A stretch of DNA of 64,000 nt from Agaricus subrufescens (taxonomy: Eukaryota; Basidiomycota; Agaricomycetes; Agaricales; Agaricaceae): contig CM057067.1 of assembly GCA_029945375.1 (NCBI GenBank), positions 1,116,001-1,180,000 on the forward strand, given 5' to 3'. Within the stretch, counting starts at the first letter, position 1. Each line of letters begins with the position of its first letter. The notes under the pieces are model-generated. The model saw only the letters and a program-made list of their open reading frames with translations, searched no databases and was not told the origin of the DNA. The translations under genes and the position numbers were made by a program. Positions 7,613-16,900 of this stretch are shown in pieces.

Positions 7613-7877
7613 TTGGCTGGTTTTTTTTTGTTTGTTTTTTTTTAACAAATATATTCTGGCTGAATCTTGTACTGCAGTCAGTTCGAGTAGTTTGCTCTAA
7701 TGTAGACTTTCTTCTACAGTGGATTTCGTATTTGCGTTGTGCTTTATATGCGATATGTAATGTTGTCACGTTATCTAGGAGTATGTATTCAAAAGCTTTT
7801 GATCTTTGATGTCAGGCTCCTTCCCATCCCCTCTGCTGAGCCGCTCGAGGTCACGTGGGTTCCCACAAACTTTGTTT

Positions 7878-7922
7878 GCGAGCGTCAGCGAGGGGCTGGC
7901 GACATACGGGTCGGCAATCACC
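7878..7922 (+). repeat. Left terminal inverted repeat of the helicase/DUF6589 element
   Basis: Contains GAGGGGCTGGCGACATACGG (7890-7909). Its reverse complement recurs at the other end of the element. Over 7878-7910 the two arms differ at two positions (GCGAGC/GCGAAC and CAGCGA/CAGTGA). The match continues as TCGGCA-ATCAC after a 3-base gap. It ends 110 bp before the helicase ATG, so it may also carry promoter elements. Confidence 0.85.
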
Positions 7923-8031
7923 GAGGCTCACAGCCACCCTCTTATGTGCCGAACTTGCTCAGACACAAAATGTCGTTTTTGGTAGTAGACTAATTAATCT
8001 ATTTATACATACGTCACACATATCTACTCTC

Positions 8032-10784
8032 ATGTCTGCATCCCTGGCCCTGCAACTCGAAGAACTCACCTCGCCGTGGACATCTGAGCGCATCAGAGAC
8101 TTAGTCCAATCAAAATTTCATAAGCGGGCATGTTGGTATCAAATAGAAGCCGCTAGAGCCTTCTATTCCGGCCACGATGTGATCGGTTGCGCTCCTACTG
8201 GTGCCGGCAAAACACTGTCGTTTTGGATTCCTTTGCTCATGGCCAATGAGGATGGGATTTCCAAAATCCTCTTTGTGATCAGTCCTCTCAACGTACTTGC
8301 TAAGGATCAGGCCAAGGAGCTGAAGAAGGCCGGCATTTCGGCCATTGCTGTTGCTGCCGAAAATGCAACAGTAAATACATTCAAGGTACATATCTCATTT
8401 TGTAGCTCAAATCTCCGCTCACTATGGCCAGAATATTGCCTCTGGAAAGTATCAGGTTGTTATCACCAACCCGGAAATCATGGTGACGAATGACCGGCTC
8501 AAAAAACTGTGGACTACATCAACATTCACTCAACGTATCCTTGGTTTTGTTTTCGACGAGGCCCACTGTATAACTCAGTGGGGGAAGTTCAGAAAAGCAT
8601 ATCTCGCTGTTGGAATTATCAGATATTTGATATCTGATCCTGTACCATTTTACCTCGCTTCGGCAACTCTTCCCCCACCACTACTCGCCGAAACACGAAA
8701 GCTCCTTCATATGAACCGTGCACACACTGTCGATCTATTATGCAGTAATGAGCGGCCAGATATAGCGCTCATGGTGCGTCAAATGGCCTACCCTGGATCT
8801 TCCTATCGCGACCTCGAGTTTCTTGTGCCATACAACTGGCAAGACGGCATGTTACAACCACGGAAGTTCATAGTTTTCTTTGATAATATCAAAGAATGCG
8901 AAGGAGCCAAAGATTTTTTCGACGGACGATTACTTCAAGAGCATCATGACAAGATCATGTATTTTCATTCAACAATGAGCTCACAGTATCGTGATAAGAT
9001 GCTTGACGCATTTCGAAGAGGGGACCTTTGGGGACTTCTCTGCACTGATGCGTTTGGTTTGGTAAGTTGTACATATCTAAATAATTGAATTGTTTACTTA
9101 CAAAGAAAAATCAAGGGAATGGATGTTGGCGACATCGAGGTGGTTGTCCAATACAAAGCTACATGCGAATTCTCGACGCTGTGGCAGCGGTTTGGTCGTG
9201 CGGCGCGGCGTGAAGGCGTACAGGGAGTCGGAGTGTTGCTTGTGGAGAAAAAAGATGTGACGGCTAGCAGGAGGACAAAAAAGGCATTCGCATCGACGGG
9301 CAAACGATCAAGAGACGACTCACAGGGGGGAAGAAAAAAAAGGCAACGACGAACATATGAGATGGCGGCATCAGTCATTGTCAAAGAAGAGGAGAAGCCC
9401 GGGAATGTCGCAACTGCGGACCCTATCACAGACCCTGCCAAGGAATGGACGTGTGAACGAAGGAAGAGATATTTAAAGCCGGAAATAGCACCAAACGATC
9501 CGACTAACACAAAAAAAGGGAAAAACCCGGGTGTAATCCCTGGGTCTGCAATCGACGACTACATTAATCTCCCCCCCTTTATCCCATGTCGTCGTCTAGT
9601 CCCTCAGTTATATTTTGCAAACGATACCAGAGGTAAGTACTATTCTTTGTTTCCGGCTGTTCGATTGCTTATACTTTTAATAGTAATTGATGGGCATCTC
9701 CAGTGTGACCCTGTAACGAACGGCGGCTGCCAGCGTTGCAGACCCCGCACTTGCACCATGTGTTGCGACAAATGCAACCCAGGCTATTTTGTGGACTTCT
9801 TTGTCTGCCCAACAAAACGACCATCTGCGCCCCGACGTTCAAATATCAATCAAGACTATATTCGGCTGCCTCAGCACAAGACGTTTGAGCAGGCATTATT
9901 TGACTGGCGTGGTACTCAAGCACTCCAACAATTAGGGGAGGATGTTATTTCAGACTTAGGGCCGGAACTCCTCATGTCCGGAGAGGTTATGTCCCGCATA
10001 GTTGATTGTTGGACTTTTGGGAAGATAGCTAACCTTTCTGACTTGCGTAGGGAAACAAGCTGGGCAGACGAATGGATAGACTTGTGTGGTCAATCGCTGA
10101 TTGACCTTGTCATCACTCATTCCAACTTCGTAGCTCAAGAGGCTGCTAACGATCTCACTTCCGCCACCATGACCTCGGAACCACTGATCCTCCTATCGGG
10201 AACTTCGACGGATACTGTCACTAGCAATACCAATATGGTATCGTCAACATCGTCGACTCTACCTGCCTCAGCACTGCCTCAAATATGTTCCGAAACTGTA
10301 CACCTTCCATCATCAACGCCACTGTCCCCTCCCCCCTCCACACCATTAATGCTGGCCCCTTTAGTCCCGCAAAAGCGTGTGCTAAGATGCAAGTTGTGTC
10401 AAAGAACGGGCCATAATCGTATGTATCATTTTCACATCCCTCTTAATAGAGAACTCAACAAGACACGAACATGTAGAAAGAACATGCCCACTTCGTGATA
10501 CATCACATATATCGAGAGAGGTAAAAATTGAACTAATTGATCACATAGAACAAGAAAATCTCCATCGCATGACCCTGACTCCCGTTGCCACGACTTCGCT
10601 CCCCACAGCCTCCACTCCAACTGCTTCAGTGGCTCGACCTCCACTCCGCTCCCGTGGACAACAACAAGAAAAATACATATTCGAAAGTTATGACTGGCTG
10701 AGCTATGATCGACTTTCTCAAGTTGCAAATTTGCAGGCAACTCAATCATCAACGAATAATGTTCCATCATCGAAGATATCTTGA
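8032..10784 (+). CDS. RecQ-like DNA helicase with C-terminal Cys cluster and zinc knuckle
   Basis: Exons 8032-8385, 8432-9061, 9116-9632, 9684-10418, 10477-10784 give 847 residues. Helicase motifs in order: I APTGAGKTLSFWIPLL, Ia ISPLNVLAKDQ, II DEAHCITQWG (RecQ-type DEAH), III ASATL, IV KFIVFFDN, V TDAFGLGMDVGDIEVVVQY, VI QRFGRAAR. All key Walker residues are present, so it should be an active ATPase. After motif VI comes a basic stretch rich in Lys/Arg, a Cys cluster within CQRCRPRTCTMCCDKC, a Ser/Thr/Pro-rich linker and a CCHC knuckle (CKLCQRTGHNQRTC, split by the last intron). I see no canonical RQC or HRDC domain. Agaricomycetes carry many such RecQ-like genes, resembling telomere-linked helicases. 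Here the gene is half of a TIR-bounded element, and its 3' coding end overlaps the DUF6589 gene. Expected role: DNA unwinding during element mobility or copying (inference). Confidence 0.8.
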
Positions 10785-13732
10785 TCATCCTCGAGGTCCG
10801 GTTCTTCTCTGGTGTCTTCTCTCATCCTGTCGTCAATTTCGCTCTCTCTCTCGGCTAGGCTGCTTGTGCTCGAGTTGTGCTGATTCTCTATTTGCGCTCT
10901 CATGCTCTCTTGCTTCGCTGCTTTCAAGACTTGTGCCCTCCTGGTTTCCTCAACATTAGCTGTCAGCTTGCTCATTCCAATTTCCATCGTGTTCGGTATT
11001 TTGTATCCTGCATCCCGCCCTGCAATAAAACTGTTTACCCGATGCTCTATCATATAGTTGGCTAGCCTCGTGAACGTATGCTTCATTTTGGGCGGTGAGT
11101 GATGAGTTGTTTTGTGAGATAAACAAAACATCGATTCGAATTGAGATCGAACGTCTTTATAAACTTCAATCAGCGGGGAGGCTTCGAGCATTCGATGTAC
11201 AGTATGATTCGAACCCGATCCGCCAAATATTCTTTTGATATATAAATTATTGTGCTCGATAACCCAATCAATTGCGCGGAAGTGATCGGGTTTACCGGTG
11301 GGATTGACAAGAGAGTTATATCGAATTGCACGACTGTCATGAAGGTGAGTGTCAAACTTACTAATGAATGAATGATGCAACATACGCTAATGATTTTGGA
11401 TATAGGATATACATGTTTTCTAGGTATTGACGGAGTTCTCTGGCGTATTTTACCTTTCCGCACCCCATAAAGAAGTACATCCAGGTAGGTAAGCATCGAT
11501 CAAGTCGCCCAATGTCGCCATGGTTCATAGCGTAAGTCGTTTCTTCATATAGAAGAAAATCCTTGCTTAGAGTCCTGGTCAGCTCAAATACTTTATCTCG
11601 TTCACTGTCATCCTTCTGAGCCTCGCAGAGCAGGCTTGCAGGTGCGACATAATTTTTGACAAGTGTCTCTGCGATCTGACATATGTCCTCCCAACTAGGT
11701 TCCGAGTTGGCCCATTCACTGAGGGATGAAAACCCATATCGACGTTGCACCTCTTCACGCCATCCTTCAAGACGAAGTACTATGCCTACGTGTTGGATCA
11801 CTTCGTGCATTTGACGGAAACCAGGGTTTGCCTGAATTTTGCGCGTTTCCATTGGTCGAAGTTTGGCAACATAATTGATTAGTGCTGCAGGCACCTTTTC
11901 CGCATCTGGTCCGCTATTAATATGTCGCCTCCAAATAGCGTCAGCGCAAGCCATACGAACGTGGAACCATCCAGGACAATAAATGACTGGTTGGAATCGT
12001 TGAAATGATGTCACGTCCACACAACGAGATGCTTGAAGACTCCGTATGTTTCTTCCTGTTCCTAGGTCACCAAAAACTAGGATATTGTGATTGCCAATTT
12101 CAACAGGGATTTTCTTTTTCTTTGTTGATGCGGAGCCTACTGGCTCTGGTTCCCGAAATTCCATATCTGATCCAGAATTTGTACCCTCCTCCACTTCCTC
12201 TCCAACATTCGCTTGTTGGAAGAACTCTTGCATTACGGTTGCGTTTTTAGCGGGAGTATCAGGCCCTGTTTCTGAAGCACGAAGTGGAACTTGCGTTGTT
12301 TTTATGACAGGTATGCACTCAATCTCTTCAGGACGCTTGAGCTGCTTGTTGAATTGTGCGAAGGAGGGTGGACCGTGTTGAATCAAATCATCGAGGAACT
12401 TCCATCGATTGAAACGATCACGATAGGTGAGATTGTTCTCGTCTCGTTTGTCTGACGGTAGAGCTGACAGGAGTTCTTTTGTGCTTGCTGGAGGAGGTGG
12501 ATTAAGCGTAAGTTCACGGAGAGTATCAGAGAAAGCTAGGTCCTCCTTTGTAACGCCGTGATTCAATGGAAACATAGATGCTGTAGTCAGATGTACGAGG
12601 GTGTCCGACATAGAATGCTCCTCAGTAGGTCTAGAGTGAGGGAGATCGACATCCAGGTTATCATAAGCGTATGAAGTTAGAAGCGTTGCACCGAGATCCC
12701 GCATTTGAGTAGTTGCCTCAGCAGACAAATGCCTCATTGCCCGATCTATTGTTTTGACGGCGACTGACACTCCAATATGTGCCAGAAATTGCCGAACTTG
12801 CTCCGCGACATTGCAGGACTGCAGAAAGACACCAACGAGTGCCTGCAGCATGTTGGCTCGTTGGTTTGTTGCTTGCATCATAATGCTGATGCAAGTAATC
12901 TTTTTCTATAAGCTGTTATGAATAAAAATTTCTTGAACGACGGACAAATACTCACAACTTTTATCAGTGTATTCCACCGATTTTCCAGTTGGTCTTCAAC
13001 ATCCTCTGGCTCATCTTCATCTTGACCAATAAACCAATTTAGTTCTTCAACGTTTTTCTTTCGCTTTGATGCTGGTTTTTTCCCATCCTTATTGTTTAAC
13101 CGTTGTTTCTCCCTAATCTCCCGTTCAATTCTTCGCCGTTCAGCCAATTTCGGATCAGCTTGTAACAACTCCCCTACAAGCTCCCATAAATCTGGTGCAT
13201 GTTGAATGATACCCTCCTCAATCCGTTTGATAGAACACTCTTGCATGCGTTCTGCGGTCATTGACGTGGCAGTAAAATGGAAGCCATGTTGGACTTTTGT
13301 GAGTTCGTGGACTTGAGATTTCAAATTTTCCAAATATGCTTCTCGCATCCAGATGTTCACAGTGGACTGTGTTTGTGGATGTACAGATAGGTGGTGAAGC
13401 AGGGATGGCAACGTGTATGTAAAGCTGGAGGTGTACAATGGGTTCACCGCTCCTGGTTCGCTCAAGATACGTTGGACAAAGCTTTCCAGGGGGATGTCGT
13501 TACACTGGAGTAGGTTCACTGCATGTTGAAATGCAGATTCTTTTGCACTAGGGGAATACATGGGTAGGGAAAGAAAGAGTAGTATTGCTCTACTAATATT
13601 ACAACACGTATGCGAAGAGACTGTGCTTCTCGGTGCGTCGCTGGTAGGCAAGGCAGCCATTGAGTTTGCTTGACTGCCTTCTCTGCCTCGATGCTCGAAA
13701 TAGCTCAGTGTTACGGCTGTCACGCCCGCCAT
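10742..13732 (-). CDS. DUF6589-domain protein (possible transposase-like partner)
   Basis: Exons 13732-12956, 12905-11386, 11333-10742 give 962 residues. The N-terminal third is helical with a highly basic segment (KKPASKRKKN) and an acidic one. The C-terminal two thirds match the fungal DUF6589 family as I remember it: LVFGDLGTGRN, CPGWFHVRMACADAIWRRH, a conserved NPGFRQMHEVIQHVG, FLLYEETTYAMNHGDIGR, and NPTGKPDHFRAIDWVIEHNN. The spacing GDxxT ... PGxFHxxM recalls RNase-H-fold transposase cores, but this is inference; no function is established that I know of. The start ATG lies 42 bp inside the right inverted repeat. The last 43 bp overlap the helicase coding end on the other strand. No frameshift or stop was found in the spliced frame. 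Confidence 0.8.
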
Positions 13733-13773
13733 TTATATTCAAGATGTATTATGCAAGCTGTGGGAAAAGATCA

Positions 13774-13819
13774 GTGATGCCGATTTCCCGTATGTCGCCA
13801 GCCCCTCACTGACGTTCGC
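13774..13819 (-). repeat. Right terminal inverted repeat of the helicase/DUF6589 element
   Basis: Reverse complement of the left arm, with two core mismatches and one 3-base insertion. It lies only 42 bp upstream of the first ATG of the DUF6589 gene, so it must overlap that gene's promoter or 5' UTR. Confidence 0.85.
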
Positions 13820-13920
13820 TGACCCCTTTGGGTCAAAAGTATCGAAGATCACGTGCGAAATGAGTCAGTGAGAGGGATGGGTAGGAGCCTGTCTTCAAGC
13901 ATTCATTACCTCTCTTAGGA

Positions 13921-16900
13921 ATGTATAACAACAATTCTTCGCAGGCAAACACTGCAGATTCGATAACATCTTTCAGTATGGAACTACAACGACCACGTAC
14001 TGGACACTCTATGACAACGCGTCCTGCTACGGCTAGACCAACAACTGCAGCTTCGACTACGCGTCATGAAGCGAGCTATGTGGTAGCCTTGTTAGAAGGA
14101 CGTGGAGTGTCGAGGGAAATTGGTATGGCTGCTTTGGATAAGGATACTGGAATATGTGTACTCGTTCAGGTTTGATTTCGAGTTTCTATCTTCCTTTTGA
14201 CTCTATCAATGTTTGATAAACGGTTGACGAGCGCATATACATATATGCTTTTTTTTTTGACAGATTGCTGATTGTCAGACATATGTGAAGACACTTCATC
14301 AATTGCATTTGCACCCACCTATAGTGGTGCTCGTGCCCGATACGTTTTTATCTATTCAGGACCCTGCATTTGTGAATTCTGTTGGAGGGAGTCATGGTGT
14401 GAATGTTGGAAGGAAAGCGAGAGGGGTTGGAAGTGGGGGTGGGGTTCCGACGAGCACGTCTTTATTGGTTGAGTACGTGAGGGAAGAGTTTCCTAATGCT
14501 GTTGTTGAACCTGTTGGGAGAAAATATTGGAATGATACTGGCGGTTGGTTCTTTCCTTTAGATAACCTGATTTTGATTCGGATTACTGATATGAGGAAAT
14601 GTAGGTCTTGAATTTGTGACACAGCTGTGTGTTGAAGGAGATGAACGTGCCGCAACTATTCTTGCTGCATCTAACAAGTGCGCATATATTCACTCTGGGT
14701 GCTCTTTCGTATACAATTTCTTCATTCCAGGTATTATGCCCTCTCAGCGGCATGTGCTTTGTTCAAATATGCCGAAAGTCAACTCAATATTCGCTTCGCG
14801 AGTAATTCTCTGAGGATACGATATATAGTTGTTGAAGGTACTATGATGATCGACCCTGAGACTGTTAAGAATTTGGAATTGGTGAAGAATGTCATGAATA
14901 GGAAATCGCCTCATACGCTATTTGGGTAATTCTTCTATGATCATGAAGTTAAGTTTGTTTTCTGAATAGCTGACTTGGGTTTATTAGGGTTTTGAATTAT
15001 ACTTTTACAGCGATGGGTGGAAGACTTTTGAGAGTCAATATCCTATCGCCTCTAACTGGTGCCTGATTCGTCCTGTGAGTTCGGCCTCAGTATGACTTAC
15101 GTTTGTATATATAGACCGCCAAGCTGTAGATGCACGACTCGACGTTGTCGCGGGTAAATCTTTCTTTGAAGGTGTTTGAGTGGTGAATTCTGATAGGGAT
15201 GTTAGAGTTTGTACAAAATGAAGACCGCTTCAATGACGTCAGGGAAGCTTTGAAACTGCTAAACAAAATGGATTTTGATAAACTTGTTGTTTCGGTTCGT
15301 CGACTTATGTCCACGATCGCGTTCATGAGAAAGCTCACTGGAGAGTGAATGACCTTTGTTTCGTTAGCTTGCTTCATCCGAGGCGAGGCCGATCACTACT
15401 GCTAAGGGGGCATTTTCTAGGGTGACCCAAATGCTTAATCTGCGCAATTTGGTCAAGTACTTGCCTAGCCTCAAACGAGCTTTGGCTGGTAGCGAATCGC
15501 GGCTGTTGCGGATTGTTCATGAGGTATGAATAGTTCCTGTCTAATAGGTGTACGGTCATTGATTTTCTTGGAAGATGATTTCGGATGAGAGGTTGGCGGT
15601 CATCGAGGAACTTGTCTGCGCGAATTTGAACGAGGAAACGGTTGTAGCGAAGGTATATTTTCCGACTATGGTGGTCAGAAGATAGGATACCTGACGCTTC
15701 GCTAGGGTGGCATTGGTGCTGTAAATGCTCGTGTATACGCAGTCCGAGTAAGTTGGGTTTTCCTAAAAAGATTATATTTCGCTGACTGTCTCCGTTAGGC
15801 GAACTGCAACAAACTACTGGATGTCGCTCGCGAGACCTACAAAGAGAACGTCAGCGACATATACGAACTGAACAAGATGCTAGCGGATGAACATGAGCTA
15901 CCGATTACTCTCATGTATCAGAACGGTGGCTTTGCTTTTGTCCTTAAGAAGACTGCCGCAATCGGAGAACTTCCGAAGAACTTTGTAAACGTCTCGTCAC
16001 GCAAAGGGAAATGGTTATTTTCGAGTATGGAGCTGGTATGCTATTTGAATGGCTGTTTTCTTGTCTTACTAATGTGGTTTTCCTGCAGAAAAAATTGAAC
16101 GCTCGGATGAAGGACGCTCTTGATGAAACGTTAATCCTTAGCGATAAGTGGGTGATTTCCATCACCTAATTCGAGAATATTTTATATATTTTCACGTAGA
16201 ATCATCCAGGATCTTGTATCCGAAATTGTAGCCGAGATTGGAGCTTTGTATAAGGCCTCGGAAGCTGTGAGTAATTGGCGACCTGGCCCAGATAATTGGC
16301 GATCCGATGTTTCCGCAGGTTGCTCTTGTGGATATGTTATGGTCATTTTCTCATGCTTCGATCAGTAAGTTTTATTTTCAGAGTCTTATGTGATTGAACC
16401 ATGTTGTATTTCAGTGCGAAACTATAGTGAGCATCGAGTGCCACAAAAGTGTACTTGTCCTGACCATTTGAAGCGAGACCGGAATTCACGGGAACACTAG
16501 CCATTAAATCAGGGCGACATCCTATATTAGAGACTGTACAGGCTGCAGGGTCCCTTGTCCCTAATGACGTTTATTGTGATGATGCGTCTTCGTTCCAGGT
16601 CATACAGGGCCCAAAGTTTGTCCATCCTCTATTCGTTTAAAAGCATCAATACCTGATTGTTGAACAGCATGTCTGGAAAGAGCACGTATCTCCGACAAAT
16701 CGGCCTGTTGACAGTCATGGCCACATGTGGATCTTTTGTCCCTGCTGAATATGCTAGCTTCCGGTCAGTCGGAGCCTTCTCCCGCGTAAAGTCAACATTG
16801 ATATCATAACAGCCTCCATGACTGTCTCCTGACTCGCTTGTCAAACGATGATGATCTTGAGAAGAGTCTAAGTACATTTGCCAGTGAGATGACAACGTCA

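What the first reader, a model, noticed from the sequence alone, without database searches (positions are those of the whole stretch)
7878..13819. TIR-bounded two-gene element pairing a RecQ-like helicase with a DUF6589 protein
Seen: two convergent genes lie exactly between inverted repeats of about 45 bp (31/33 in the core), and each gene starts just inside a repeat. Known: RecQ-like helicases and DUF6589 proteins are both expanded in mushroom-forming fungi, with no settled role for DUF6589. Inference: they are two components of one transposon family, with DUF6589 as the DNA-cleaving protein and the helicase unwinding or copying DNA, a combination I do not know as a described DNA transposon.
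Basis: partly seen in the sequence, partly recalled or inferred. Interest (0 to 1): 0.92.

Follow-up and report, generated by a model that had tools for sequence, protein, structure and literature searches.

The report
Helicase-carrying jumping gene of a mushroom
This is a young, intact-looking jumping gene of a mushroom-type fungus that carries a DNA-cutting enzyme filed as 'unknown function' and a DNA-unwinding enzyme; its general type was described in 2020, but the likely nature of the cutting enzyme and the way it inserts are laid out more clearly here.

The parts
7813..13891 (.). Whole element, 6079 bp, ends CAGGCTCC...GGAGCCTG
   Evidence: Four copies (window plus three with 1-2 differences) end exactly here
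7813..7829 (+). Outer terminal repeat, left, 17 bp
   Evidence: Pattern CAGGCTCCTWCCCRTCC with up to 1 mismatch: 110 places in the genome against 5 for the reversed control; shared by subfamilies and by derivatives down to 79 bp
13875..13891 (-). Outer terminal repeat, right, 17 bp (16 of 17 identical to the left one)
7878..7910 (+).
   Evidence: a similar core can be read by eye in the ends of four diverged copies
13787..13819 (-). Sub-terminal inverted repeat, right
8032..10784 (+). RecQ-type helicase gene, 856 aa, exons 8032-8385, 8432-9061, 9116-9632, 9684-10418, 10450-10784 (introns inferred from GT..AG and frame)
10742..13732 (-). DUF6589 transposase gene, 962 aa, exons 13732-12956, 12905-11386, 11333-10742 (introns inferred)
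12660..12662 (-). Proposed first catalytic D (D341, in YDNLD)
   Evidence: motif position; D in 55 of 55 rows with a letter
12066..12068 (-). Proposed second catalytic D (D539, in FGDLGT)
   Evidence: (53 of 53)
11544..11546 (-). Proposed catalytic E (E713, in LLYEE)
   Evidence: (50 of 53); chosen for its place in a late helix, no geometry measured
10742..10784 (.). 43-bp overlap of the 3' ends of the two convergent genes

Best explanation
A young, open-framed, probably autonomous DNA transposon of AcademH type. The DUF6589 protein is a DDE (RNase H-fold) transposase: it binds the ends, cuts them and joins them to staggered target cuts, which after repair leave a 9- or occasionally 10-bp target duplication (duplication and empty site shown; fold predicted; catalysis inferred). 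The RecQ-type helicase is a co-evolving second component that probably opens DNA at the ends or unwinds the strand-transfer junction so that host repair can fill the gap (inferred). The 17-bp outer box is probably the essential end; the sub-terminal repeat is probably an extra binding site that helps full-length copies (inferred).
For: Three further copies with 1-2 differences in 6079 bp; the four copies stand for three insertion sites. Target duplications at 17 of 18 insertions examined at both ends, 16 of 9 bp and one of 10 bp; control with shifted positions 45 of 1,125,600, true ends 6 of 7. Empty site: 501 of 501 bases at C6:2266400-2266900 equal the joined flanks of the C2/C1 insertion with one copy of the duplication; unoccupied relatives also for two other insertions. 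23 of 24 DUF6589 loci have a convergent helicase relative within 12 kb, 19 of them within 2.4 kb. Helicase and transposase distance matrices of 11 loci correlate at r 0.90, 0 of 5000 permutations. Non-synonymous change well below synonymous in both genes against seven loci. AlphaFold models: pLDDT 85.1 (lead P0004) and 83.9 (window's own exon); the first 32 rows of VIA-align for the former and the first 16 for the latter are DDE transposases or RAG. AcademH is reported to make 9 or 10 bp duplications and AcademX 3 or 4 (PMC10045372 passages).
Confidence: 0.87

Rival explanations
1. A DDE transposon with an accessory helicase that is not Academ: a separate superfamily (for example near MuDR/MULE, or hAT/P by fold) that acquired a RecQ helicase on its own.
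For: Best fold matches are Hermes (hAT) and P element; MULE duplications of about 9 bp are recalled, from no call; no Academ reference could be compared.
Against: Pfam at E 0.01 finds only DUF6589 in the transposase; helicase plus 9-10 bp duplication matches what is reported for AcademH.
Confidence: 0.1
2. KolobokH: fungal Kolobok transposon with a RecQ helicase.
For: KolobokH has a RecQ helicase and is reported only from fungi; one rhodophyte Kolobok has the helicase on the complementary strand, as here (PMC9587614 passages).
Against: Kolobok duplicates TTAA (recalled); here the duplications are 9-10 bp of varied sequence.
Confidence: 0.01
3. Two ordinary host genes that happen to lie between chance inverted repeats.
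For: Only the lack of a target duplication at the window copy.
Against: Near-identical copies at other sites with duplications and an exact empty site.
Confidence: 0.005
4. A rival on mechanism only, compatible with AcademH: the helicase is a passenger, transposition needs only the DUF6589 protein, and the helicase serves another end (escape from silencing, host repair).
For: One 5317-bp copy (C7:1628234-1633550) has lost the helicase core and still has a 9-bp duplication, though it may have moved with help from other copies or lost the gene later.
Against: Helicase beside the transposase at 23 of 24 loci, low non-synonymous change, divergence in step.
Confidence: 0.2

Closest known systems
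AcademH (Academ DNA transposons encoding a helicase; Kojima 2020, Mob DNA 11:15; not held, known here through its title and passages of papers that cite it)
   Same: DDE transposase plus helicase, fungal host, 9 or 10 bp target duplications
   Different: No difference found; transposase sequence and termini could not be compared with references
AcademX
   Same: Presumed related transposase
   Different: Reported to carry a nuclease rather than a helicase and to make 3 or 4 bp duplications
KolobokH
   Same: DDE transposase with RecQ helicase, fungi
   Different: 9-10 bp duplications here; helicase is a separate convergent gene, not downstream of the transposase domain
hAT (Hermes) and P element transposases
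   Same: Best fold matches of the DUF6589 models
   Different: No Pfam match to either; 14% identity or less over the aligned residues
Pfam DUF6589 (PF20231)
   Same: Window protein scores 320 bits against a cut-off of 27
   Different: Pfam lists it as unknown function; here it looks like a transposase core

Membership tests
AcademH | Element encodes a helicase | tested here: met
   DEAD + Helicase_C, RecQ best in NCBIfam and PDB. PMC10799480 ascribes these two domains to AcademH, KolobokH or Helitron alike, so this alone is not specific
AcademH | Target duplications of 9 or 10 bp | tested here: met
   17 of 18 insertions: 16 of 9 bp, one of 10 bp; feature from PMC10045372. The window copy itself has none
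AcademH | DDD/E transposase | tested here: met
   Predicted fold and conserved D-D-E; Academ listed among DDD/E superfamilies in PMC9587614. Not assayed
AcademH | Transposase sequence groups with Academ references | not testable with these tools
   No Academ reference sequence at hand; paper not held
AcademH | Terminal motif of the family | not testable with these tools
   Published termini not available here
AcademX | 3 or 4 bp target duplications | tested here: not met
   9-10 bp
KolobokH | TTAA target duplication (recalled) | tested here: not met
hAT / P element / MULE | Match to a Pfam model of that family | tested here: not met
   Pfam at E 0.01 reports only DUF6589 for the transposase; distant kinship is not excluded by this
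hAT (Hermes-like) | Hermes-like DDE fold | tested here: inconclusive

The most novel reading that the evidence does not exclude
DUF6589 proteins of mushroom-forming fungi are, or descend from, the DDE transposase of a two-component transposon in which the RecQ helicase is an obligatory partner, so that a DDE transposon needs its own helicase to move; the 17-bp outer box with its first few neighbours is the whole cis requirement.
Probability: 0.35. Interest if true: 0.65.

Novelty: new member of a known kind. Interest (0 to 1): 0.42.

Why it matters
It gives a likely function to Pfam DUF6589, a family named 'unknown function', and so to mushroom gene models that carry it. The nearly identical copies, exact empty site and 79-bp derivative make a helicase-carrying DDE transposon directly testable: does the transposase need the helicase, and why are the duplications 9-10 bp here and 3-4 bp in relatives that carry a nuclease?

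Tried and rejected
Search for DUF6589 relatives outside mushrooms, to tie the family to Academ elements with a nuclease: two further protein searches gave 7 and 13 proteins, each list including its query (only about 8000 candidates scored in each). One search held the fusion P0048 (Paramarasmius palmivorus, DUF6589 + DEAD + Helicase_C), one more DUF6589 protein and five helicase-type proteins; one search held 13 DUF6589 proteins from sources without a named host. No DUF6589-nuclease fusion appears in these lists. Two scans of viral contigs confirmed no relative. A sequence search of solved structures with the DUF6589 profile gave two chance-level hits. Automatic search for ends plus duplication found 4 in the 20 loci; 16 gave none, and I did not resolve why for each. 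A first pairing of ends at C3:3810733-3816969 gave no duplication; the inner end 3810832 did. The joined-flank search listed no empty site for the window, C8 and C1:5419399 insertions, but it scored only 40 of 96 candidates, so absence is not shown. Papers: 'DUF6589' in 0 papers of the library, 'PF20231' in one unrelated paper; searches gave the citing papers used here or nothing on DUF6589. Host species not identified; a Marasmius oreades assembly of similar size is in print (PMC8290104, passages), identity not tested.

Limits of counts: the script got the 42 DUF6589 rows but 44 of the 88 helicase rows (mostly second pieces of loci already listed were dropped); and 50 counts are lower bounds by the tool's own note. 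Alignment A1 used 56 of the 60 proteins (P0048, P0058, P0059, P0060 left out); A3 used 43 of the 60 plus the window exon. Searches used seven and ten fetched loci beside the window, picked by me because both genes were in the stretch; L015 was trimmed; the last helicase exon was left out; there was no neutral control. The notebook says 20 loci within 2.4 kb; the recount gives 19 of 23.

Full report
What is there. It is not the end of the element. A search of the window's own genome (44,652,945 bases, 44 contigs) finds four copies that all stop at window 7813 and 13891, 6079 bp each; against the window copy they differ at 1 (C8), 2 (C2) and 2 (C1) bases. The ends read CAGGCTCCTTCCCATCC and, inverted, CAGGCTCCTACCCATCC. 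The 13-base core occurs at these two places without mismatch, and once with one, in the 64-kb window, 0.09 matches being expected. The C2 and C1 copies are identical for 1.5 kb beyond each end, so they are one insertion later duplicated (or duplicated in the assembly); the four copies thus stand for three insertion sites.

Genes. Splicing by GT..AG and frame gives a helicase of 856 aa in five exons (8032-10784, +) and a DUF6589 protein of 962 aa in three exons (13732-10742, -), whose 3' ends overlap by 43 bp; the introns are inferred, without transcripts. Pfam: DEAD 1.3e-24, Helicase_C 1.8e-17, ResIII 8.5e-6; DUF6589 1.9e-95, 320 bits. The helicase is closest to RecQ among solved structures (1oyw 2.3e-22, with WRN, RECQ1 and BLM among the next) and in NCBIfam (TIGR00614 recQ_fam 1.2e-37, 129.8 bits, below that model's cut-off of 219.8). 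It has APTGAGKT, DEAH and two cysteine-rich stretches (positions; the reading of the motifs is mine).

It moves. Target duplications flank 17 of the 18 insertions that I examined at both ends. Full-size or large: C8 GGATCGGGC, C2/C1 GACAAAAAC, C1:5419399-5425502 TGACTTGCCG (10 bp), C1:641335-647578 GATGTCACC, C7:1628234-1633550 TAACTGAAA, C5:3515582-3521721 GGCTTTGCA, C3:2415508-2421583 CCACTATCA, C3:3810832-3816969 GGCTGGCAC, C9:2489820-2501528 CAGATGTGG (11.7 kb with a doubled terminus, its inside not fully read). Short: eight derivatives of 79, 81, 117, 161, 753, 988, 1366 and 1685 bp, all with 9 bp. The eighteenth, the window copy, has CTTTGATGT on the left and TCTTCAAGC on the right, with no shared word of 7 or more within 60 bases of the ends. 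For position pairs shifted around the ends of seven loci, 45 of 1,125,600 gave an exact 9-bp repeat; at the true ends 6 of 7 did. A query of joined flanks found the empty site of the C2/C1 insertion at C6:2266497-2266776, 100% over 280 bases, and 501 of 501 bases in the fetched stretch. Two further insertions (C1:641335 and C7:1628234) lie in repeats with unoccupied relatives that run across the junction, at 91-99% and at 92-96%, the latter reaching only about 50 bases past the junction. For the window, C8 and C1:5419399 sites none was listed, but 40 of 96 candidates were scored.

The two genes are one unit. The family model PF20231 rings at 42 pieces in the own genome, which merge into 24 loci; 23 of 24 have a relative of this helicase within 12 kb, all 23 convergent, 19 with less than 2.4 kb between the pieces (44 of the 88 helicase rows were given). 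The exception, C7:1629730, is the 5317-bp copy that has lost the helicase core. Over 11 loci the helicase and transposase distance matrices correlate at r 0.90; 0 of 5000 permutations reach that, though near-duplicate loci among the 11 help. Against seven diverged loci, synonymous differences are near saturation (pS 0.74-0.86) while non-synonymous ones are 0.20-0.36, in both genes alike (no neutral control). Stops appear in the aligned part of at least one gene in six of these seven loci (all but L010).

How it most likely works. Shown: precise insertion with a 9-10 bp duplication, recent movement, a conserved helicase partner. Predicted: a DDE-like fold. Inferred: the transposase cuts both ends and joins them with a 9-nt stagger; the RecQ-type helicase opens the ends or clears the joined intermediate for repair. 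The 79-bp derivative keeps the outer 17 bp and, read by eye, lacks the sub-terminal repeat; the 81- and 117-bp ones keep somewhat more of the ends. So the outer box with few neighbours is probably enough in cis, and the repeat at 7878 would be an auxiliary binding site.

What is known. A helicase lineage of Academ was described by Kojima in 2020 (AcademH). That paper is not held; I saw passages of papers that cite it: 9 or 10 bp duplications for AcademH and 3 or 4 for AcademX, the difference linked to helicase and nuclease (PMC10045372); DEAD and Helicase_C domains ascribed to AcademH, KolobokH or Helitron, and AcademH as low-copy elements in Basidiomycota, Ascomycota and Mucoromycota (PMC10799480). 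A Marasmius oreades genome paper noticed widespread putative nonautonomous Academ elements and searched for autonomous ones with a profile (PMC8290104 passages). KolobokH joins a RecQ helicase with a Kolobok transposase (PMC9587614 passages). The features tested here fit AcademH; a sequence comparison with Academ references could not be made. In the library no paper holds 'DUF6589', and 'PF20231' occurs only in an unrelated one, so the link from DUF6589 to a DDE transposase was not found in print by these searches; subscription papers and Repbase were not searched.

Verdict. A real, young element with two open genes, of a described kind. The extra value lies in the likely function of DUF6589, the tight two-gene pairing and the exact insertion anatomy.

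Noticed in passing
window 7801-7812 and 13892-13903: The window copy alone of 18 insertions lacks a target duplication. Deletion at insertion or recombination between copies could explain it.
   Followed up: partly
G000 C11:595203 (L011) and C11:617095-617127 (L046): An end inserted in the 17-bp terminus of a resident relative, with GATGGGAAG beside both ends 21.9 kb apart; not shown to be one element and not counted among the 18.
   Followed up: partly
G000 C9:2501495-2501528 (L045): Doubled 17-bp terminus followed by CAGATGTGG, which also flanks the end at C9:2489820; may be a nested insertion into the terminus.
   Followed up: partly
G000 C3:3810832-3816969 (L043, L044): A copy inserted in the sub-terminal repeat of another copy (duplication GGCTGGCAC).
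   Followed up: yes
G000 C1:1540840 and C2:693336 (L003, L004): Two copies identical including 1.5 kb on each side, with an empty relative of the site on C6: a recent segmental duplication or an assembly effect.
   Followed up: partly
window 13921-14929: The element ends about 30 bp upstream of an ATG (13921) of a likely gene; it looked like MSH4 to me from memory, but Pfam found nothing in three short frames scanned.
   Followed up: partly
P0048: Paramarasmius palmivorus gene model of 1568 aa with DUF6589, DEAD and Helicase_C in one chain: fusion or merged gene model.
   Followed up: no
P0060, P0067-P0078: A divergent DUF6589 group (GDQLT motif in P0060) from sources with no named host.
   Followed up: no
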